From Kiritimatiellia bacterium (GTDB lineage Bacteria; Verrucomicrobiota; Kiritimatiellia; RFP12; UBA1067), in contig JAFXTB010000144.1 of the NCBI GenBank assembly GCA_017525225.1, positions 1 through 44,829 on the forward strand: a stretch of 44,829 nt of DNA. The letters are read 5' to 3'. The notes under the pieces were generated by a model. That model was not told where the DNA came from and ran no database searches. It saw only the letters and a program-made list of their open reading frames with translations. This document shows, piece after piece, positions 1 through 9,728 of the stretch. The stretch's first letter is position 1. Each line of letters starts with the position of its first letter. The translations under genes and the position numbers were made by a program.

Positions 1-399
1 CTTCATCTCCTCGACGGCGGCGAAGATGTTCTTCTTGAAGTCCGCATCGCCGCCAAGTTCCGTCCCGCTGACGAAATAGAGCGGCACGGTCTCGCCCTCG
101 AACGTGATGGTCTTGTGCGTGTTGAGCCAGACGGCGACGTTGCTTGATTCGAGGATGCCTTTCTTGACTGCGTCTTTGAGCGCAAGCGCGAGATCCTGTT
201 CGTTGCCGTGGTGGTTCGCAAGGAGGGACTTCCATGTCTGCGGATCGGCAATCTTGACGAACTCCGCCAGCTGGCTGGGGATGAAGAGATCGTCCGAGAC
301 GATGTTCGGCTCCGTCTCGCGGTAGCCAAGCCCGCCGCTCTCTTCAGGTCTGCAGAAGAACGGCATGATTTCCTTGTGCTGTAGTTCTGTTTCAATCAT
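1..399 (-). CDS. hsdR: Type I restriction enzyme R subunit, N-terminal part (runs off the left edge)
   Basis: 133 codons are open from an ATG at 399 to the left edge with no stop. The start follows AAAGGTGG about 4 nt upstream. The translation begins MIETELQHKEIMPFF and continues through a segment with NIVSDDLFIPSQLAEFV and an AVWLNTHKTITFEGE stretch. This resembles the N-terminal part of type I R subunits, the ATP-dependent motor and nuclease chain that translocates and cuts unmodified DNA. The conserved nuclease and helicase motifs would lie beyond the edge, so the call rests mostly on position: it is the last gene of an operon holding HsdM and HsdS, 46 bp after the AlbA-type gene. It could instead be another accessory protein of the locus. 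Confidence 0.6.
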   Translation of the reverse strand, partial: MIETELQHKEIMPFFCRPEESGGLGYRETEPNIVSDDLFIPSQLAEFVKIADPQTWKSLLANHHGNEQDLALALKDAVKKGILESSNVAVWLNTHKTITFEGETVPLYFVSGTELGGDADFKKNIFAAVEEMK

Positions 400-445
400 A
401 TGCCACCTTTGATGTTTCCGTCAGCGATCAACCGATAGTTATAAC

Positions 446-2179
446 TCATTGACAAGTCTCTTTGACTAACAGGGCATTTCGCGCTTTGTCAGTGAGTTTC
501 CAGAGAGGTTTTGTATCCGTCCCCGAATTGTAAATATCACCTTTTCGGCGCAGATACGTCAATAAATTGCCGATTTTTGTCAGTTTCTCGCGTTCGGTTA
601 AGTCGCCGCGAATCTCCTCGAGCATGTATTCATTGATTTCAGCCCGCGTCAATCCGTTGAATTTTCCAATGTAGTCAATGAGCAATCCACGGTAATGCGC
701 CCCCGTTCGCTCCTTCTTCTTCATGTAAGCCGCCTTTTGATCGGTCAACGCCGCCAATTGTGCGGAGATATGGAGATGCGGGACGCGTCCTTCGATCAAT
801 CCTTCCTGACGCAAATGTGCCACGGCGCGGGCGTCGATCTTCAGGTTCTTCTGAACTCGGTCCAAGAGGCAGACATCATCCAGATTCAAATCTGTCCGCC
901 GGATAAGCAGACTGCTATAGGCGGGATCGACAACATGTCCGAAGATCGTCATCCGAACATAATCACTCCCCAATTCGTAATCCGGCATCGGGAAGTAGCG
1001 TTTGCGCTGCTCCATATACAGCCGGTGGATGCCATATCCCTGAGTGTCAATCATGTTCACTTCACGCATGGCCGTCACAAGCTGAAGATTCCGATATTGA
1101 GAGGGTGTCTTCTTGCCGTCGATGTATTCCTCTGGTTTCCCCTCGAAGAAATTGCCGCGGTTTTCAAAGACGAGACGATCGACATATTCAGAGACAACGA
1201 CACGTCCGTTCAACCTGTAGTTCTGGTGCGCGATGCAGTTGTGCAGCGCTTCCAAAACACTCTTGTCAACATACTTGGGAACTTTGCGTGGAATAAGCTC
1301 GCCTTGTGGCAGCACATCGACAAGGACATTTCGAATACGCGCATACAGGCGGTTTGTCGCGAGGAGAAACGGCGGATAGAAGATCTCGTCGCCCTGCTCC
1401 TCGCCCAACAGTTTCCAGACGAGCTGGGCGGGATACGGCGAAAGGAGATGCGCGGACAGTTCCTTGCCGACGAGCAGCATGGTCGTGCGCGTAATGACGC
1501 CCTTGCGCGTCAAACGGGCACGATCAAGGAATGTCCGCAGATCCCAGCCGTTCACTTCCTCTTCCGTGTACTTTAAGGAATTTTTCTCGTAGAATCCCTG
1601 CCGCGCCTTGGTGATCGCCTGCTCGTCAAGGTCGTCGTATGTGGCGTCTGCAACCGGCACCGCCGACCAATCGTCTGAAAGCCCTTGGTTGCGGATCTCG
1701 TCAAGCTTGTCGAGTCCAAGCGCCACAAGGCTTTCGCCGGACCGCGCATAGTAGTGCCCCTGCCAAGCAACGGGTGTGCCGCGAGGCGCGGCAGGGATCT
1801 CCAGCAGAAGGACACGACCATCTGGATGATGCAACTCGTGAATGTCGACAAGCGAAACACTGGGGTCTGTGCCTTCTGTGATCTGCATCTTCAGCCCTTG
1901 AGGACCGTCCAGACGTCCGGGCTCCTTCCCGAATTCGCACTCCTTCACCCGTCGTGTCTTATTCTCGACACCAAGGACAAGCCAAGCCCTCGGCAAGGCT
2001 CGCAAGTTTGCCTCATTTGACAACGCCGAAAAATACTTGCCGATGCTATGCAGGGAATAGCCTGCCCCAGCCTCCTTGAATTCAACGACTTCGTCTTCCC
2101 AGTTTTCAATCAGCCGATCCAGCAGCGCAGTCATTTCCTGTTCAGTCATGCCTTGTATCCTTTCGCAATATTGTACCAT
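446..2179 (-). CDS. AlbA_2/Schlafen-type ATP-binding protein (RecG-like transcriptional regulator family)
   Basis: A protein of about 577 aa. Near the N-terminus it has the AlbA_2/Schlafen-type signature, EDEVVEFKEA followed by a GVENKTRRV stretch. In the middle it has a GHKL-like ATPase segment (ALHNCIAHQNY, then FENRGNFFEG). The C-terminus looks like a winged helix (LTRAEINEYML, then LLTYLRRKGDIYNSG). Such proteins are common companions of type I restriction loci; their role there is not settled, and nucleic-acid binding or regulation is inferred. Two starts are plausible. The ATG at 2179 has AAGGAGG 9 nt upstream, one base after the hsdS stop. The ATG at 2149 (MTEQEMTALL) has AAAGGA 8 nt upstream and fits the usual family start better. 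It is co-transcribed with hsdS and hsdR. Confidence 0.8.
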   Translation of the reverse strand: MVQYCERIQGMTEQEMTALLDRLIENWEDEVVEFKEAGAGYSLHSIGKYFSALSNEANLRALPRAWLVLGVENKTRRVKECEFGKEPGRLDGPQGLKMQITEGTDPSVSLVDIHELHHPDGRVLLLEIPAAPRGTPVAWQGHYYARSGESLVALGLDKLDEIRNQGLSDDWSAVPVADATYDDLDEQAITKARQGFYEKNSLKYTEEEVNGWDLRTFLDRARLTRKGVITRTTMLLVGKELSAHLLSPYPAQLVWKLLGEEQGDEIFYPPFLLATNRLYARIRNVLVDVLPQGELIPRKVPKYVDKSVLEALHNCIAHQNYRLNGRVVVSEYVDRLVFENRGNFFEGKPEEYIDGKKTPSQYRNLQLVTAMREVNMIDTQGYGIHRLYMEQRKRYFPMPDYELGSDYVRMTIFGHVVDPAYSSLLIRRTDLNLDDVCLLDRVQKNLKIDARAVAHLRQEGLIEGRVPHLHISAQLAALTDQKAAYMKKKERTGAHYRGLLIDYIGKFNGLTRAEINEYMLEEIRGDLTEREKLTKIGNLLTYLRRKGDIYNSGTDTKPLWKLTDKARNALLVKETCQ

Positions 2180-2180
2180 A

Positions 2181-3518
2181 TTACGCCACCTCCTTGCCAC
2201 GGCGAATCGGCTTGTCCGCGAAGACGGGCCGCTTCCCTGTCACGACCTCGTTGATGAGCGAGCGCTTGAGCTTCTTGTAAAGCTCGATCTCCCGCGTCAC
2301 CAGCTCTGCCATCTTGTCGATCTTTGCACACTCGGCGTCGAGGTAATCGGCAATGGCGTGCTGTTCGGGGAGGGGCGGCAACCCTACACGCAGACCTGTA
2401 ATTGTGCCTCGATTGATATTGGGTTGCGTTCCTCCCTCGGCAAATATCAAAAGCCGCTGTTGAGATCTTTGAAGCAAATAAAACATGAATCCAAGGTCAA
2501 TTTCAGGCCTTGGCTTGCAAAGTGCGCAACAGGCTTGGTTAGTACAGGCATCTACGCCAATTTTTGAAACATTCCCAATTGAAGCACCATACATAGCAAC
2601 GCAAATAAATGGTGCCTTGTAAATCGGAAGTGAATAACTCTGAAGCGTCGTCCTGTTTACGCGCTTGCTCGTCTCGAACACCCAGTCGCCATGTAAGTCG
2701 CCTGATTGAACCCAAGGTATATCGCCTTCATAAAGATCCTGCGACCCTGTCCGAGGAGTAGTTCCGCTTCCAATCACATCAAAGCAATTGCCAATTTTAT
2801 CAACGGTCCACCCCGCCGGCACCTTGCCGATCCAATCCACGCCCGAATCCTTCAGCTTTGCCTTCGGGTCGAGGCCGCGAGTGACGGCGCGGTTGATGAC
2901 GCTCGTCTTTAGCCGCTTGTACGCAGAAAGCTTCTTCTCCAAAACCACCCCCCGTCCGTCAATCGCCGCCGACTTCTCGTCGAGATAGGCGACGATCGCC
3001 TGCTGGGTGGGAAGCGGTGGAACCGGCAAAGGCACTTGCCGCATCTTCTCTTTTGTGAAATGAGGTATTGTTGCAACATTACATGCATACGTAATGTATC
3101 CACGCTGCCCGAGTTGCTGAAACCAATAACACAGATATTTGTTACATGTAAAACATTCCCCACGCAATCGTAGAATTGAATTCTGAAAGTAGGTGTCGCC
3201 ATCCAGTTTTTCTACCACAGCGCAACCACCAGCCCCCGCACCACCTTCTACAACAAGCATATCTCCAACTTTGATTCTGTACGCATCCTTCTCTGCCTGG
3301 GAGAACCACATTTCTTTCTTTTCGCCACTTACTCCATCGTAGTGAACGTTTGCTGCACAAATATACTTCTCTAACGTTTCATGTGTTGAGGAAGGCTTCG
3401 GGGATAGCATCTTCCCTAACTGTATGGAAAAATGGGTTCCTACACGAGAGACCTCCCATCCCTCTGGCACTTGCCCGATCCAATCAATGCCAGAATCTTT
3501 CATTTGGGATTCGCTCAT
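2181..3518 (-). CDS. hsdS: Type I restriction-modification specificity subunit
   Basis: A 445-aa HsdS of normal length. It has two target-recognition domains, each introduced by the same signature: KDSGIDWIGQVPEGW near residue 7 and KDSGVDWIGKVPAGW near residue 222. Each is followed by a helical spacer (PLPTQQAIVAYLDEKSAAID and LPPLPEQHAIADYLDAECAK) that docks on HsdM. The two half-sites of a bipartite DNA target are read by these domains. The ATG overlaps the TGA of the upstream DUF1016 gene by 4 nt (ATGA), so translation is probably coupled. The last codons carry the AAGGAGG that serves the next gene. No frameshift or invertible repeats were noticed. Confidence 0.95.
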   Translation of the reverse strand: MSESQMKDSGIDWIGQVPEGWEVSRVGTHFSIQLGKMLSPKPSSTHETLEKYICAANVHYDGVSGEKKEMWFSQAEKDAYRIKVGDMLVVEGGAGAGGCAVVEKLDGDTYFQNSILRLRGECFTCNKYLCYWFQQLGQRGYITYACNVATIPHFTKEKMRQVPLPVPPLPTQQAIVAYLDEKSAAIDGRGVVLEKKLSAYKRLKTSVINRAVTRGLDPKAKLKDSGVDWIGKVPAGWTVDKIGNCFDVIGSGTTPRTGSQDLYEGDIPWVQSGDLHGDWVFETSKRVNRTTLQSYSLPIYKAPFICVAMYGASIGNVSKIGVDACTNQACCALCKPRPEIDLGFMFYLLQRSQQRLLIFAEGGTQPNINRGTITGLRVGLPPLPEQHAIADYLDAECAKIDKMAELVTREIELYKKLKRSLINEVVTGKRPVFADKPIRRGKEVA

Positions 3519-4792
3519 TTCCCTTTCCCCCTCGCCTTGCGCTTCTTCGCGCCGGTATCTGCCGACGCTTCGCGCTTGTACTCGATCATCACCTTGCGTA
3601 CGCCGTCGATGACGGGCGCAAGCGCCTTGTAGGGCTGCGGGATGTTACGGAGTGCCTGATACGTGGCGATACCGATAGGCTGCGAATACCCCTGCACGGT
3701 CAACTGGACGACGGGCTTGTTCATCTTCTCGCACAGAAGGAGTCCGACGGACGGATTTTCGTTCGGCTTCTTTTCCACGGCGTCCAGCACGGAGAGATAC
3801 TGCGATAGCTGTCCCAGATAGGCGGCACGGAACTTGCCCATCTTCAGTTCAATCGCGACCATCGCCTGGAGAGTCCTATGGTAGAACAGCAGGTCCACGA
3901 AGAGCTCTTCGCCTTCGACGACCAGCCGCTTTTCGCGGCCCATGAAGCAGAATTCGCTGCCTCCGAGCGCGGCGATCGTCTTCTCGATGTTGGCGACCAG
4001 CTCCTTAGAGAGCACGCGCTCGTCTATGTCCTGATCGTGGATGGCATCGACGTTGTCGAGGTTGATCAGCTCCAAAAGATACTCGTCCCGGAACGAGCGC
4101 ACGGCCTTCGTCGCCAGCGCCATCGGCGAGAGCGTTTTCGCGAAGTTGTTGGGCAGCGCGCCAATGTGGTGGTAGTCGTCGGCGCGAAGGTGCTGTTGCA
4201 ATTGCTCGACCGTCCAAGGGGCTTTCGCGCAGGCATGAATGTAGTAGAGGCGCTCGTCAAAGTCCTTGCAAAAGCGAATTATCTCACGATGATGGGTAAA
4301 ACCGATGGAAAAGAAAGCGGCGATATCATCCTTGTCTAATTCATCCGTTGGCAACGGACGAATTTCGGCAGACGGCATCTGCCGATTATTCGTGTCGGCA
4401 AATTCGTTACTTGGCAAGTAATGAATTTGAGCATTGTCGATTTCATTACTTGGCAAGTAATGAAATTCGTCACTTGCCAAGTGTCGAATTTCGGGATAAG
4501 CTGCCCATGCCTCATAGAACAAGCGCATAAATATCATACTGCTTGCCGAGAACCCGCGCAGCCCCGGCAATTCGACTTGCAATTGGTTTGAAAGCGCGTC
4601 TATTGCGCCAGACCCCCACTTGGCGTTGCGTGTCTTCTTCGAGATGTACCCACCTACGAAGAAATAGAGCTTCAGCGCCTCGGCGTTTGCGAGGTGCGCA
4701 GCCTTTGCACGAGCCTGCAGGATCGCGAGCTTGATGTCCTTCACTGCCGACGCGAAATCGGCAGGGATCACGTTTCCTTGATTCTTCTTCAC
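3515..4792 (-). CDS. DUF1016 (YhcG-type) PD-(D/E)xK nuclease-domain protein with an inserted palindromic repeat array
   Basis: 425 aa from a GTG at 4792. The start is fixed by AAGGAGG 7 nt upstream and a 4-nt GTGA overlap with the hsdM stop; the longer open frame upstream is only hsdM read out of frame. The N-terminal domain (residues 10-100) is the DUF1016 helical part. The C-terminal part carries a PD-(D/E)xK site: D300 in FVDLLFYHR and E315-x-K317 in IELK. Residues about 101-152 are a run of LPSNE-like units encoded by short palindromes, absent from the basic fold. The C-terminus is basic (KKRKARGKGK). Proteins of this family are frequent in type I restriction loci, but their role in defence is not established. 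Here it sits between hsdM and hsdS. Confidence 0.88.
   Translation of the reverse strand: MKKNQGNVIPADFASAVKDIKLAILQARAKAAHLANAEALKLYFFVGGYISKKTRNAKWGSGAIDALSNQLQVELPGLRGFSASSMIFMRLFYEAWAAYPEIRHLASDEFHYLPSNEIDNAQIHYLPSNEFADTNNRQMPSAEIRPLPTDELDKDDIAAFFSIGFTHHREIIRFCKDFDERLYYIHACAKAPWTVEQLQQHLRADDYHHIGALPNNFAKTLSPMALATKAVRSFRDEYLLELINLDNVDAIHDQDIDERVLSKELVANIEKTIAALGGSEFCFMGREKRLVVEGEELFVDLLFYHRTLQAMVAIELKMGKFRAAYLGQLSQYLSVLDAVEKKPNENPSVGLLLCEKMNKPVVQLTVQGYSQPIGIATYQALRNIPQPYKALAPVIDGVRKVMIEYKREASADTGAKKRKARGKGK
4344..4490 (-). repeat. Array of five short palindromes inside the DUF1016 gene
   Basis: Five inverted repeats follow each other in frame. They centre on 4351 (7-1-7), 4375 (8-5-8), 4414 (13-1-13 with one mismatch), 4453 (13-1-13 perfect, 4440-4466) and 4477 (13-1-13 with one mismatched pair). 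Centre-to-centre distances are 24, 39, 39 and 24 nt, that is 8 or 13 codons. The core resembles ATTACTTGGCAAGTAAT, with variant stems in the outer copies that stay palindromic. On the coding strand the units give HYLPSNEI, HYLPSNEF, RQMPSAEI, RPLPTDEL and similar octapeptides. Confidence 0.85.
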
Positions 4793-6816
4793 AGTTGCAC
4801 CTCCTTCAACTCGGCGTCGAGCGCCTTGATCTCGGCGAGGATGTCCTCGACAGAGTCGAGCTTCTCCGGCACGTAAAACTCCTTGTTGAAATTGAGTTCG
4901 ACGCCGACCTTGTTTTCGCCGAGTTTGCACGGTTTGAAGATGTACTTCTTGATAAATGCCGCGATCTCGGCCTTGTTCGCATCCGAATCGAAGTGGTGCG
5001 GAATGATCTCGTAGTCGGTCGTGATCTCAGGCCCGACAGTCACCTTGATGGACTTTACGCCGCGTACCGATCCTGGCATGAGGGCGAACGTGAATGTGCC
5101 GCGTCCGAGCGGCTCTTCCTTACCGTCAACAGTGGTTCGTACCAGCGTCTCGTGCCCCTGGTCCCATGTGTAGCTCGTGCCGTCCTCGTCCTGGAACTCG
5201 GACACCTCACCGCGCCAATCGAACGCCTTAAGACGCAGAAGGAGCATGTTGGCCTTGTCCGAATCAAGATCAACGAGATCCTTTTCTTCCAAGATGTTCT
5301 CGCTGTTGTCGGCGTCAAGATCCACGCTGCCAAGCTGCGCATGCGTCAACTTGAAGGAGACCGATTTCTCGATATGTCTGCCGTCCTTGTCGAGTTCCGT
5401 CAAGAAGACCTTCTGCTTGTTGTAGTAGAAATACTCGCGGTCGAAGATCTTACAGATGGCGGACGGCTGGAAATCGTGTAGCGCCTGCACAATCGCGGCG
5501 CGGCAATCGGCCGTCATTTCGCGGCGCTTGTCGCCCTTGGACTTCTTGAGCGGGATCCATCCCTTGGAGCCGTCAATGAGCGCGACGAGGTTGCGGCGCG
5601 ACAGGGGCTTGTTCTTGTTGAGAATCCACAGGTAGGTCGTGATACCCGTGTTGAAAAACTCCTGCTGCGGCATCTGGACGAGTGCCTCGACCCAGTCATG
5701 GTCAAAGATGTACTTTCGGATGTTGCACTCTCGCGATCCGGCGTCGCCGCTGAAGAGAGTCGAGCCGTCTGCGACCACCACCGCCAGCCCCTTGGAGTCC
5801 AGCTGCCAGAGGATGTGTTGCATGAAGAGGAACTGTCCGTCGCCGACCGAAGGCAATCCGCCCTCGAACTGTCCCTTTTGGTCGTTCTCGATCTCCTTGG
5901 CATATCCTTTCCACGGCGTGCCATACGGGGGATTCGCAACCACCGCGTCAAAGGCGATGTCGCTGAAAGGAACCTTCGTGAGCGTGTTGCCGTACTCGAT
6001 CCGCGAGAAATCGCGGAAGCGGCTTTCAATCGCCGCCAGCGCGTAGAGGGCGTCGTTGTACTCCGAGCCGTAGGTTGCGATATGCTTGTACTTGCCTTGT
6101 TCGTGGAGTCGGTCCGCGACGCCGAAAAGCAGGTTAGCCCCGCCGCACGTCGGGTCATAGACATGGACAATCTCGTCTTTCGGCTTGTGCATCTTGTCCG
6201 AGACGATCTCCGCCATGAGCGAGATGATGTCGTCAGGGGTATATTGTTCTCCGGCGGTGGAGGCGGAGATGTCGGCCCACTTGCGCTTGATGTGCTCCTC
6301 AAGCGTCGTGATTGCCGAGTTGTCGTAGGGCGAAAGGTCGATCTCGGCCCACTTGGCCGCGACCTGCATCAGAATCCGCTTGCTCCGCAGTTCCGCCGCG
6401 ATCCCGTCCATGTTCAGGAACTTCTGCTCATGGCTTCCGCAGCCGACGCCCAGAAGCCGACGCAAGTCGGGGTCGAATCCTTTCAAGTACGTCTTGAAGT
6501 CCTGTTCGAAGGTCGTGTCGTTCGAGCAGATCTTCGCCAGCGTCTTCCCCTCGATTACGATAAACTCGTTGAAGCCGCAATCTTTCGTGAGAAACATCTC
6601 GCGGAAATCGTCCGGATTCTCCGCCGCCGACACGCCGAACTCCGCCTCGACCGCCTTTGCCGCATTGCGCATGCGACCCTCCAGCATCATCACCGCGAAG
6701 AACGGCATCATGTAGGCGGGGAAATCGCTCTGTTTCACGCTCGCGGCGATCAACAGGTCCGCGACACTCCAAATGTCGCTCTCATACCGCATGATATCCT
6801 GAATGTTCTCTTGCAT
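4789..6816 (-). CDS. hsdM: Type I restriction-modification DNA methyltransferase subunit
   Basis: A 675-aa N6-adenine methyltransferase. The start is the ATG at 6816 (MQENIQDIM) with GGAGG 5 nt upstream; a TTG four codons earlier lies on the ribosome-binding site itself. The N-terminal helical HsdM domain covers about residues 5-150. The TAGEQYTPDDI motif precedes the SAM-binding motif DPTCGG (about 221-226) and the catalytic NPPY (about 295-298, in NPPYGTPWKG). The C-terminal part beyond residue 450 is long and partly charged, with a helical end that would meet HsdS. It transfers a methyl group to adenine in the site chosen by HsdS. The gene follows the 174-aa protein by 24 bp and overlaps the DUF1016 start by 4 nt. 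Confidence 0.95.
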   Translation of the reverse strand: MQENIQDIMRYESDIWSVADLLIAASVKQSDFPAYMMPFFAVMMLEGRMRNAAKAVEAEFGVSAAENPDDFREMFLTKDCGFNEFIVIEGKTLAKICSNDTTFEQDFKTYLKGFDPDLRRLLGVGCGSHEQKFLNMDGIAAELRSKRILMQVAAKWAEIDLSPYDNSAITTLEEHIKRKWADISASTAGEQYTPDDIISLMAEIVSDKMHKPKDEIVHVYDPTCGGANLLFGVADRLHEQGKYKHIATYGSEYNDALYALAAIESRFRDFSRIEYGNTLTKVPFSDIAFDAVVANPPYGTPWKGYAKEIENDQKGQFEGGLPSVGDGQFLFMQHILWQLDSKGLAVVVADGSTLFSGDAGSRECNIRKYIFDHDWVEALVQMPQQEFFNTGITTYLWILNKNKPLSRRNLVALIDGSKGWIPLKKSKGDKRREMTADCRAAIVQALHDFQPSAICKIFDREYFYYNKQKVFLTELDKDGRHIEKSVSFKLTHAQLGSVDLDADNSENILEEKDLVDLDSDKANMLLLRLKAFDWRGEVSEFQDEDGTSYTWDQGHETLVRTTVDGKEEPLGRGTFTFALMPGSVRGVKSIKVTVGPEITTDYEIIPHHFDSDANKAEIAAFIKKYIFKPCKLGENKVGVELNFNKEFYVPEKLDSVEDILAEIKALDAELKEVQL

Positions 6817-6840
6817 GATATCCTCCAATAATTATTCCTC

Positions 6841-7365
6841 TCAGCAGTCTTGCGCAATCACCTCGCGCCCGATCAGCTTCACGAGGCCGTCTCGGAAGGC
6901 TGTTTTTGTGATCTTCAGATCCCCCGCCATGTCACGCAGTTCCTCAACAGGCGGATAACCCGGCTGGCTACGCAATGTTTCCAGTAGGCTACTTGAATCG
7001 CCCATCCCCGTTGTCTTGTGCGGAACGGGTCCACACATGATGGCCGCTATCGAAGGGCTGTACTGCCAGTCGCGGCAATCCTGGCTTTTGGTCTCCTTGT
7101 AGTCAAGGAAGACAAAGCGGTCTTTTGAAAAGCCCATTTCTTTGGCCACGCCGCGCAGTCTATCTTCCTTCACGCTCGGCTCGCCAATAACAATGATACG
7201 TCCAAGGGGATCGTTTTCAATGCCGTAGGAATCGCCAGACGTCAGCAAGTGTTGCATTCCGATCTTCGCAAGGAACTCTTCGAGTGTCCCTTGCTGGTTC
7301 TCAATGCAGATCCGGCTTGTCACCTCCTCGATGACTCTGTCCAGTTCGTTGATTCCGAGTGGCAT
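6841..7365 (-). CDS. Protein of unknown function in the restriction operon
   Basis: 174 aa. The start follows GGAGG with 8-nt spacing, only 3 bp after the stop of the methyltransferase-specificity fusion. No catalytic family is recognised. It has a Rossmann-like strand (GRIIVIGEP, residues about 54-62) and a conserved-looking motif GPVPHKTTGMGDSSSLL (about 111-127). A helical C-terminus contains LKITKTAFRDGLVKLI. The GKGDSSS-type motif recalls a family of small hypothetical proteins seen in other bacteria, but no function is known to me. Its place between two methyltransferase genes suggests an accessory role in the restriction system. Confidence 0.75.
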   Translation of the reverse strand: MPLGINELDRVIEEVTSRICIENQQGTLEEFLAKIGMQHLLTSGDSYGIENDPLGRIIVIGEPSVKEDRLRGVAKEMGFSKDRFVFLDYKETKSQDCRDWQYSPSIAAIMCGPVPHKTTGMGDSSSLLETLRSQPGYPPVEELRDMAGDLKITKTAFRDGLVKLIGREVIAQDC

Positions 7366-7368
7366 TCT

Positions 7369-9105
7369 TCAGCCCTCCGTCACGGTCTGGTCGTAGACCT
7401 CGCGCAGCGAGTTGATGGCGCGTTCGAGTTTGACTCGGTAGAGCGCCACCTCGTCGATCTTTGCGCGGAAGCGGTCAGCAATCTTCTTCTGCTCCGCCAG
7501 TGGCGGCAGAGGGATCTTGATCTCCTTAAGGCGTCCCAGCGAAATGGACGGCATCACTGACGCGAGGCAGAACCGCTGAAGGAGCGCCATTCCGCGTTCG
7601 CTCTCGAAAAATGCCTGCAGATAATATGGATCGGCCTTCGCCTTGTCAACTTCAATGATGAAAAGACTGCCATTTCCGAGGAGCGTCTTTCCCGGCGCGA
7701 CCTTGGCAACGGCGACCTTGAAGGGTCGTCCCATCTTCGAGACGATCAAGTCACCGTCCTTAATGCAGTACGGCAGGAACTTGCGCTCGATGTCCTTAAG
7801 GTACGGCAACTCAGCATCGATCATGCCGTTTTGAATGTTACTCAACATCAGATACTGGAAGTTCGTAGGAACACTCGATTCGAGACGGTCCAACTCCGTT
7901 GCGGTGATCGTCGCGCCCCGCGTCACCGACTTCATGACATTCCCAAACTCGACCGCATTGGGCATATCCGTCTCGGTAGAATCGCCACCCGTGTAGAAAA
8001 GCGGATTCAAGATGCTCTCACGGGCGATCAGCTCCTCGACAGAGAAGGCCGGACAGGGCGTCGGCATTTCGTCATGCACCGTCATGAGGATGTCGCGGAT
8101 GTTCTCATCGGAGAGCTCGTTTGTCCGACGTCCCACGATGCACATTTTCGTTGCATCGAGGAGTTTCACGCTCGAGTTGTCCTTCTTGCTCAATACCACG
8201 AGGGTCGTCGGAATTGCCGTACTTTGGTAGATCTTGGACGGCAGCGACACGACGGCTTCGACAAAATGACGCTCCAGAAGGAACTTGCGGATATCCGCGT
8301 CAGGCTGATTCCAGACGGCGCTATTCGTCATGATGATGACAGCCCGCCCTCCTTCCTGCAGCGAATAGAGCGCCCGAAGCGCAAAGAGCCAGTCGCTTGA
8401 AATGCTGTTCTTCATTTGCGGAAGAGAAACCGGCAGACGGGATAAAAACGCCTCGACAGGTGCGTTTCCCTTTAAACGCAGTCCCCATGGCGGATGACAG
8501 AAAATCTTCGTATAAGACGCCTTGTCTTCGCAAAGGGCAAAAACGTCGCCGCCATGAACATTCATCTTGTTGCCGAGATCAATCAGATAGGCGCGAATCC
8601 GAGCTATGGTCAATGCCTCTGGATTCAGTTCGATTGCATCGATCGACTTGACCTCTGGGACTTCCAGCCCGACTGCAGTGGAAAACAGACCAGTACCGCA
8701 GCACAACTCCGCGAACGCATCATCCTTCTTGACATTCAGCAGACCGCGAACGAGCATCGCTACCGAAGCTGGCGTAGGAACGCCAAACCGACCTTCGGTT
8801 TCACTTTCGTATGTCGGGTCGAAGATGAACGCATCAAGTGCCTCAGGTGAAAATGCCGTGATGTACCGCCGCCATCCGTCGCTCGTTCGGCGAAGGATCT
8901 TTTCGACAGCTTCCGCCAACGCCTCTGGCACGCCGCCCTCGCAGAGAACTTTAACGACATCCTTGAGTTCGACATCGACCCGACCGACCTTTCTTGCCAT
9001 TAGCATGACAAATGCAGCGCAGACGGCTCTTGAATAGTCCACGAACACTTCCTTTTTCAGAAGTGCTTCAGCAATATGCTTCACCTCAATCTCGAGTTCT
9101 GACAC
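7369..9105 (-). CDS. N6-DNA methyltransferase fused to an HsdS-like specificity domain
   Basis: A 578-aa single-chain methyltransferase-specificity protein. The GTG start at 9105 has AAGGAG 8 nt upstream. Residues about 1-90 form a helical domain. The SAM-binding motif is AELCCGTG (132-139). The catalytic motif IV reads HPPW (204-207) instead of the usual NPPY/F. From about residue 385 the chain is HsdS-like: one target-recognition domain, then PLPPLAEQKKIADRF and a closing helix. It is the first gene of the operon and differs from the HsdM (4789-6816) and HsdS (2181-3518) further down. The locus therefore encodes two methyltransferase and three recognition modules. Whether the HPPW variant is active cannot be told from sequence. 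Confidence 0.88.
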   Translation of the reverse strand: MSELEIEVKHIAEALLKKEVFVDYSRAVCAAFVMLMARKVGRVDVELKDVVKVLCEGGVPEALAEAVEKILRRTSDGWRRYITAFSPEALDAFIFDPTYESETEGRFGVPTPASVAMLVRGLLNVKKDDAFAELCCGTGLFSTAVGLEVPEVKSIDAIELNPEALTIARIRAYLIDLGNKMNVHGGDVFALCEDKASYTKIFCHPPWGLRLKGNAPVEAFLSRLPVSLPQMKNSISSDWLFALRALYSLQEGGRAVIIMTNSAVWNQPDADIRKFLLERHFVEAVVSLPSKIYQSTAIPTTLVVLSKKDNSSVKLLDATKMCIVGRRTNELSDENIRDILMTVHDEMPTPCPAFSVEELIARESILNPLFYTGGDSTETDMPNAVEFGNVMKSVTRGATITATELDRLESSVPTNFQYLMLSNIQNGMIDAELPYLKDIERKFLPYCIKDGDLIVSKMGRPFKVAVAKVAPGKTLLGNGSLFIIEVDKAKADPYYLQAFFESERGMALLQRFCLASVMPSISLGRLKEIKIPLPPLAEQKKIADRFRAKIDEVALYRVKLERAINSLREVYDQTVTEG

Positions 9106-9139
9106 GATGATTTCTCCTTGTATGTTGAAAACGCCGTGT

Positions 9140-9169
9140 ATTATACCATAACCATTAACCCTCTGTCAA
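9140..9169 (-). promoter_or_regulatory. Promoter of the restriction operon
   Basis: Reading the minus strand, TTGACA (9164-9169) and TATAAT (9140-9145) are separated by 18 bp. Both boxes match the sigma-70-type consensus exactly. The expected start near 9133 leaves a leader of about 28 nt that contains AAGGAG before the GTG at 9105. All seven genes downstream are packed with short or overlapping junctions, so this is probably the promoter for the whole operon. Confidence 0.85.
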
Positions 9170-9245
9170 GGTGGCTTAATATCTTTTATTGAGGTTGTTC
9201 ATAACCACGAAAGATGCACATTGTATCTTTCGCGTTTTGGTTGAC

Positions 9246-9350
9246 CCAGAACTGGCCTAGAAATGGCCCAAAGGCGGACTTGAGACCACTGGGAATCAAA
9301 CAATCGGCCCTAAACTGGCCCAGAAACATACAAAACTGGCCCAGAAATCA
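9246..9350. repeat. Short CTGGCCCAG-type repeats upstream of the restriction operon
   Basis: The 15-mer AAACTGGCCCAGAAA occurs twice, near 9312 and 9333, with 21-bp spacing. Degenerate relatives occur at 9246-9275 (CCAGAACTGGCCTAGAAA and ATGGCCCAAA). The core is an imperfect palindrome (CTGG/CCAG). They lie 80-180 bp upstream of the -35 box. They could be binding sites or the remains of a small repeat element. Confidence 0.5.
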
Positions 9351-9405
9351 TTCGTAATCTCTCGGCATCGACTCGACAGGACTCATTACACTTGCGGCCT
9401 ATTCT

Positions 9406-9497
9406 GGTTTGATGTTTGGTTGGTTAGGTGGTGGTTAGTTTGAGGTTGGTAGGTAGTTGGTAGGTAGTTGGTTGGTGGTTGGTGGTTGGTTGATTTG
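9406..9497. repeat. G/T-rich low-complexity tract
   Basis: For about 90 bases the plus strand is almost free of C and made of GGTTGG, GGTAGGTAGTTGG and GGTGGTTGGTGG units. Many closely spaced GG runs could support two-layer G-quadruplexes. The stretch 9170-9728 contains no convincing gene; its open frames have no family features. The tract separates the less GC-rich restriction operon from the GC-rich rest of the window. Confidence 0.6.
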
Positions 9498-9728
9498 GCG
9501 AGTCTGTTTTTGTCCTGTGTTGATCCTTGCGCCATGCGGCGGTTGCGCGTTTTTCAAAGTCGGCTCAACGTTCCGACTATCTACTGACTTGCAAATGGCT
9601 TGCGACTGGCGGCAGATCGCTAGGCGGCGATGCGAGCGAAACGGCCCCTGCCGCGCGGAACGAAAGGTGCGGAGTCACGCGCACATTCGGAGTCGCGCAG
9701 GAGATGGATGAGGACCTTCGCGGGGAGG

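What the first reader, a model, noticed from the sequence alone, without database searches (positions are those of the whole stretch)
1..9169. Type I-like restriction operon with two methyltransferases, three recognition modules and two accessory proteins
One promoter (9140-9169) drives seven tightly joined genes: a methyltransferase-specificity fusion, a 174-aa unknown, HsdM, a DUF1016 nuclease, HsdS, an AlbA/Schlafen-type protein and HsdR. A standard type I system needs only HsdM, HsdS and HsdR. The extra single-chain methyltransferase with its own recognition domain could give a second specificity, protect the host during establishment, or act as a separate system sharing the operon. The 174-aa protein between the two methyltransferases is unexplained.
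Basis: partly seen in the sequence, partly recalled or inferred. Interest (0 to 1): 0.75.

Follow-up and report, generated by a model that had tools for sequence, protein, structure and literature searches.

The report
Dead methyltransferase guarding a restriction operon
The first gene of this bacterial antiviral (restriction-modification) operon looks like a DNA methyltransferase but has lost its catalytic motif; relatives in many phyla carry a matching DNA palindrome in their own promoters, so it most likely works as a switch controlling the operon, a job not previously assigned to such a protein as far as I could find.

Summary
The operon is real: seven closely spaced genes on the minus strand, promoter at 9140-9169, type I HsdM, HsdS and HsdR (HsdR cut by the contig end), plus DUF1016 and AlbA/Schlafen genes. 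The reading "second methyltransferase with a second specificity" is not supported. Gene 1 ("FUS", 578 aa) has the HsdM fold plus half an HsdS, but catalytic motif IV is destroyed (HPPW). It is broken in all 42 relatives examined and intact in 23 of 23 neighbouring HsdMs. FUS and the 174-aa gene (P174) recur as a pair in many phyla, in 24 of 30 scorable loci ahead of an unrelated intact methyltransferase operon. FUS also occurs without P174. The FUS recognition domain is its most conserved part, the reverse of true HsdS. FUS promoters carry a 14-bp palindrome, GGTT-N6-AACC: 42 exact copies in 20.9 kb of FUS promoter DNA against 9 in 594 kb elsewhere (133-fold), often over the -35, the -10 or the transcription start. 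The palindrome follows FUS even where P174 and type I genes are absent. The only exact copy in the window is at 9193-9206. Best explanation: FUS is a repurposed, non-methylating type I enzyme acting as autorepressor and controller of the operon, with P174 as an optional partner. No experiment was possible.

The parts
7369..9105 (-). FUS: 578-aa degenerate N6 methyltransferase (res. 1-376) fused to one target-recognition domain and long helix (res. ~384-578); predicted DNA-binding autoregulator
9193..9206 (-). predicted operator GGTTATGAACAACC (GGTT-N6-AACC), the only exact copy in the window
9164..9169 (-). -35 element TTGACA
9140..9145 (-). -10 element TATAAT (spacer 18)
6841..7365 (-). P174: 174-aa partner protein, predicted helical N-terminus plus Rossmann/CheY-like alpha/beta domain; no family in Pfam, NCBIfam or PADLOC
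4789..6828 (-). HsdM (679 aa), intact NPPY motif
3515..4792 (-). DUF1016/YhcG PDDEXK nuclease (ORF extends to 4930; likely start 4792)
2181..3518 (-). HsdS (445 aa, two recognition domains)
446..2200 (-). SLFN/AlbA_2 + HATPase_c_4 protein (584 aa)
1..399 (-). HsdR, N-terminal 133 aa, cut by the contig end

Best explanation
FUS is a former type I-like methyltransferase (HsdM fused to half an HsdS) that no longer methylates DNA. It most likely dimerises, as half-HsdS proteins do, so that its two recognition domains read a palindrome (GGTT-N6-AACC; 9193-9206 in the window) in its own promoter and control transcription of the FUS-P174-hsd operon, most often as a repressor. P174 is an optional partner, perhaps the element that senses a signal and releases FUS. 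Shown here by computation: motif loss, pair conservation, promoter palindrome, its tie to FUS and not to P174. Inferred: that FUS itself binds the palindrome, dimerisation, the sign of regulation, the inducing signal and the role of P174.
For: (1) Motif IV [NDS]PP[FYW] is lost in 42 of 42 FUS proteins (HPPW, FPPF, FPTW, NYPF, QYPL, EFPL, NCGF, VPPF...) but kept in 23 of 23 HsdMs of the same loci. (2) The recognition domain is the most conserved part of FUS (mean pairwise identity 0.44, against 0.35 methylase domain and 0.19 N-terminus); in HsdS of the same loci it is the least conserved (0.16 against 0.27 helices). (3) GGTT-N6-AACC: 42 exact sites in 20.9 kb of FUS promoter regions against 9 in 594 kb elsewhere, 133-fold; 20 of 31 promoters against at most 9 in shuffles; a repeated half-site at spacer 6 in 13 of 32 loci against at most 1 in shuffles; none in 78 kb of FUS-less type I loci. 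(4) Same geometry with other half-sites: GGTA, GGAT, GGCT, GATT. (5) The palindrome persists in FUS loci without P174 (L084, L085, L086, L088, L096, L098) and, in L096, without any type I genes; none of nine P174-without-FUS loci has an exact copy. (6) Sites contain the -35 in six loci or the -10 in three, or lie ~40-50 bp downstream of the -35. (7) Model residues 372-576 superpose on the half-S protein Esub1 over 195 of 196 residues (Z 20.8, 2.4 A) and residues 1-373 on HsdM (Z ~32). An engineered HsdM-half-HsdS fusion dimerises on a palindrome, ACC-N5-GGT (PMC6158711).
Against: No binding or expression data. Half-site changes do not track the recognition domain once overall FUS divergence is removed (partial Mantel r 0.10, p 0.25). 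Inner positions of the palindrome are also biased (GGTTATnAAWAACC), so it may be a compact 14-bp operator and not a true bipartite type I site. In the window the single exact site lies upstream of the -35, so the sign of regulation there is open. In many loci 76-380 bp separate P174 from hsdM, so hsd genes may have promoters of their own. Many homologues keep NYPF, which resembles N-x-P-F motifs of some active RNA methylases (own knowledge), so activity is not excluded family-wide.
Confidence: 0.7

Rival explanations
1. FUS is still an active orphan-like methyltransferase that methylates adenines of GGTT-N6-AACC in its own promoter, so that methylation itself sets expression (as in AhdI, LlaDII or CfrBI).
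For: The fold aligns with CamA and M.TaqI; SAM motif I is partly kept and most homologues keep N.PF; promoter-methylation control is known (PMC12707154).
Against: Motif IV lacks the Asn in the window (HPPW) and in several lineages, and no homologue has [NDS]PP[FYW]. The site is not enriched in the host genome (23 forward matches against 18 for the reversed pattern).
Confidence: 0.12
2. The palindrome is bound by P174 or by an unlinked host regulator, and FUS is a structural or inhibitory subunit of the HsdM/HsdS complex.
For: The TRD/half-site partial correlation is not significant; FUS shares HsdM and HsdS folds, so mixed complexes are conceivable.
Against: The palindrome remains where P174 and type I genes are missing and no exact copy is found in P174-only loci; half-sites differ between loci while the N6 geometry stays.
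Confidence: 0.12
3. FUS-P174 is a separate two-gene defence system that merely shares promoters with type I systems; the palindrome is its autoregulatory site.
For: Five of 30 scorable pair loci have no restriction-type methylase nearby on either strand; a FUS sits on a phage-like contig.
Against: 24 of 30 are followed, co-directionally, by intact methylase genes, and in the window the spacing is 12 bp.
Confidence: 0.15

Closest known systems
RptR, repressor of type I R-M islands (PMC12255303)
   Same: First gene of the island, frequently upstream of type I R-M, palindromic sites overlapping its own promoter
   Different: RptR is a 9-kDa alpha-helical protein binding TAGCTA; FUS is a 578-aa methylase-like protein with a 14-bp palindrome
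Engineered HsdM-half-HsdS fusion (PMC6158711)
   Same: HsdM fused to one recognition domain; reads a palindrome as a dimer
   Different: The engineered fusion is an active methyltransferase used in restriction; FUS has lost its catalytic motif and its site is in its own promoter
AhdI, LlaDII, CfrBI promoter methylation (PMC12707154)
   Same: A methyltransferase acting at its own promoter
   Different: Those act by methylating DNA
HTH-bearing regulatory methylases (EcoRII, SsoII, Ecl18kI; PMC12707154)
   Same: A methyltransferase polypeptide represses its own gene
   Different: They bind through an added N-terminal HTH domain and remain methylases; FUS has no HTH match and presumably uses its own recognition domain
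C proteins of R-M systems (PMC12707154)
   Same: Small-circuit autoregulation of an R-M operon
   Different: Small HTH proteins, unrelated in sequence and fold

Membership tests
Type I restriction-modification operon | HsdM, HsdS and HsdR encoded together | tested here: met
   HsdR only as the N-terminal 133 aa because the contig ends
Active N6-adenine DNA methyltransferase (second modification enzyme) | motif IV [NDS]PP[FYW] | tested here: not met
   HPPW in the window; 0 of 42 relatives; HsdM control 23 of 23
Active N6-adenine DNA methyltransferase (second modification enzyme) | adenine methylation of a motif in vivo | not testable with these tools
   needs methylome sequencing
HsdM-half-HsdS (M1/2S) architecture | HsdM fold plus one recognition domain and long helix in one chain | tested here: met
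   AlphaFold pLDDT 89; Z 32.8 to PacII M1 (res. 1-373), Z 20.8 to half-S Esub1 (res. 372-576)
HsdM-half-HsdS (M1/2S) architecture | palindromic target with non-specific spacer | tested here: inconclusive
   GGTT-N6-AACC found upstream, but inner positions are also biased and binding is untested
C protein controllers / HTH regulatory methylases | helix-turn-helix domain | tested here: not met
   no HTH family in FUS or P174; FUS N-terminus aligns to the HsdM N-terminus
RptR | ~9-kDa all-helical repressor binding TAGCTA | tested here: not met
   sizes, folds and site differ (PMC12255303)
R-M transcription controllers (functional class) | protein binds its own promoter and controls the R-M genes | not testable with these tools
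   site found; binding and regulation need experiment

The most novel reading that the evidence does not exclude
FUS is a decoy sensor. By keeping the shape of a type I methyltransferase it could be captured by the same phage counter-weapons that disable type I enzymes (DNA mimics such as Ocr or ArdA, or SAM depletion), fall off its operator and so switch on the restriction operon exactly when restriction is under attack; P174 could tune or read this state.
Probability: 0.2. Interest if true: 0.9.

Novelty: new variant of a known kind. Interest (0 to 1): 0.72.

Why it matters
How type I R-M systems are regulated is little known; the described examples I read are small dedicated repressors, a C protein and promoter methylation. 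A restriction enzyme subunit turned into a DNA-binding switch would be a new class of regulator, with a predicted 14-bp operator that can be tested by gel shift, reporter and methylome. It would also correct annotations: many genes named 'N-6 DNA methylase' at the head of type I operons may not be methylases at all.

Tried and rejected
Second active methylase or host protection: rejected for the window protein on motif IV. P174 family search: nothing in Pfam, NCBIfam, PADLOC or the PDB by sequence; by structure only a common Rossmann/CheY-like arrangement, best Z 6.7, which is not assignable. P174 on phages, plasmids and IMG/VR: no match. Covariation between recognition domain and half-site: not significant after correcting for divergence. 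A genome-wide regulon in G000: not enriched. A second exact operator in the window: none; the promoter spacer holds two GGTT half-sites in direct orientation (sequence). HsdR fragment by family models and in 241 same-phylum genomes: no match; resolved through a plasmid relative. Papers on an inactive methylase as R-M regulator, or on Esub1: none found in the held library; subscription journals are mostly missing.

Full report
WHAT IS THERE. The window is the whole of contig C38 of the host assembly. HsdR is cut by the contig end; the remaining 133 residues match the start of an HsdR-like helicase that follows a 46%-identical HsdM and an HsdS on a Planktothrix plasmid.

A CONSERVED PAIR. The 174-aa protein (P174) matches no described family. 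In 388 same-phylum genomes it occurs in four (including this one), each time directly after a relative of the fusion gene (FUS). A scan of 84,980 species genomes with a P174 alignment found 45 loci in Bacillota, Planctomycetes, Verrucomicrobiota/Lentisphaerae, Bacteroidota, Proteobacteria, Spirochaetes and others; 34 have FUS immediately upstream. Of the 30 with enough downstream sequence, 24 continue in the same direction with a methylase gene with an intact motif within 7 kb, mostly type I hsdM of very different kinds with hsdS and hsdR. FUS also exists without P174 (L084-L086, L088, a phage-like contig L096, plasmids L098 and, more distantly, L099 and L100). So FUS-P174 is a portable leader in front of many unrelated restriction operons, and FUS is its constant part.

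FUS IS PROBABLY NOT A METHYLTRANSFERASE. AlphaFold gives a confident model (pLDDT 89). Residues 1-373 align to HsdM structures (Z about 32) and residues 372-576 to the half-HsdS protein Esub1 over 195 of 196 residues (Z 20.8, 2.4 A). But motif IV, the adenine-binding [NDS]PP[FYW] of these enzymes, is HPPW here and is non-canonical in all 42 FUS sequences examined (34, four, four), while the 23 HsdM proteins compared, from the same loci and the window, all keep NPPF or NPPY. The recognition domain behaves the opposite way to a restriction specificity domain: it is the best conserved part of FUS (0.44 against 0.35 for the methylase domain and 0.19 for the N-terminus), whereas in HsdS proteins of the same loci the recognition domains are the least conserved (0.16 against 0.27 for the helices). 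FUS appears to be held to one target.

THE TARGET SITS IN ITS OWN PROMOTER. In regions upstream of FUS from otherwise unrelated genomes, the palindrome GGTT-N6-AACC occurs in 20 of 31 (no 4-bp palindrome of any spacing reached more than 9 in 30 shuffled sets). Across 38 loci there are 42 exact copies in 20.9 kb around the FUS start against 9 in the other 594 kb, a 133-fold difference. Testing all spacers from 0 to 15 without fixing the half-site, 13 of 32 loci contain a repeated half-site at spacer 6, against a maximum of 1 in 60 shuffled sets. Loci without GGTT use other half-sites at the same spacing: GGTA, GGAT, GGCT, GATT. There is no exact copy in 78 kb of type I loci that lack FUS, and none in nine loci with P174-like genes but no FUS. 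FUS genes without P174 keep the palindrome, and the FUS on a phage-like contig, with no type I genes beside it, has three exact copies over its promoter. The palindrome therefore travels with FUS. Sites lie about 15-45 bp before the -35 start, over the -35 (GGTTATTGACAACC in six loci) or the -10 (three loci), and 40-50 bp after the -35 start: the layout of a repressor, possibly bridging two sites. The extended consensus is GGTTATnAAWAACC. The window has one exact copy, 9193-9206, 24 bp upstream of the -35. The host genome as a whole is not enriched for the site, which suggests local control.

A distant Lactococcus plasmid relative (25% identity, annotated N-6 DNA methylase, motif VPPF, followed by hsdM, hsdS and hsdR) has a different recognition domain and, flanking its promoter, two copies of a different palindrome, TTAGTATTnnnAATACTAA. 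This fits the idea that recognition domain and operator change together, but a formal test within the main group was not significant.

MECHANISM. Most likely FUS dimerises, reads the palindrome with its two recognition domains and shuts down, or limits, the operon at the promoter it shares with P174 and, where spacing is short as in the window (12 bp), the hsd genes. P174, a predicted Rossmann/CheY-like protein (pLDDT 88), is an optional partner; a signal receiver is a guess. Why a methylase shape was kept is open. One attractive possibility, not tested, is that it lets the repressor be captured by phage anti-restriction proteins, so that the operon is induced when type I enzymes come under attack.

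COMPARED WITH WHAT IS KNOWN. Known controls of R-M systems are C proteins, methylases with an added HTH domain, promoter methylation, antisense RNA (PMC12707154) and the small type I repressor RptR (PMC12255303). An engineered HsdM-half-HsdS fusion dimerises on a palindrome, and its authors noted the likeness of half-HsdS dimers to transcription factors (PMC6158711). FUS would be the natural case, turned into a regulator. I found no paper describing it, but the library lacks most subscription journals.

LIMITS. All evidence is comparative. Binding, sign, signal and the P174 role are untested; many homologues keep NYPF and could retain some activity; the longer P174-hsdM gaps in other genomes may hold separate promoters; and the palindrome may be a compact 14-bp operator, not a classical bipartite type I site.

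Noticed in passing
L038:5932-10363, L046:6415-10414, L049:6225-10411: A P174-like domain forms the C-terminal part of 362-452-aa proteins that follow a 565-634-aa protein and a 382-400-aa SF1/Schlafen-group-3 helicase-like protein: an apparently conserved three-gene module, without the GGTT-N6-AACC site.
   Followed up: partly
L096:287-2038: A FUS gene with three exact operator copies lies on an IMG/VR phage-like contig next to HNH, terminase-like and ParB-methylase-like genes, with no R-M operon beside it.
   Followed up: partly
L099:5644-7455: A Lactococcus plasmid gene annotated 'N-6 DNA methylase' leads a type I operon, has a broken motif IV (VPPF) and a different repeated palindrome around its promoter; a convenient laboratory relative.
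   Followed up: partly
window 9280-9500: Intergenic stretch upstream of the operator with repeated TGGCCCAGAAA-like units and a long run of GGTTGG/GGTAGG-type repeats.
   Followed up: no
window 4380-4480: The DUF1016 gene carries an insertion with repeated HYLPSNE-like units between its two domains.
   Followed up: no
L087 (FUS relative at G090:C85:21076-22791): One FUS relative carries an in-frame TGA, so the leader may be decaying there.
   Followed up: no
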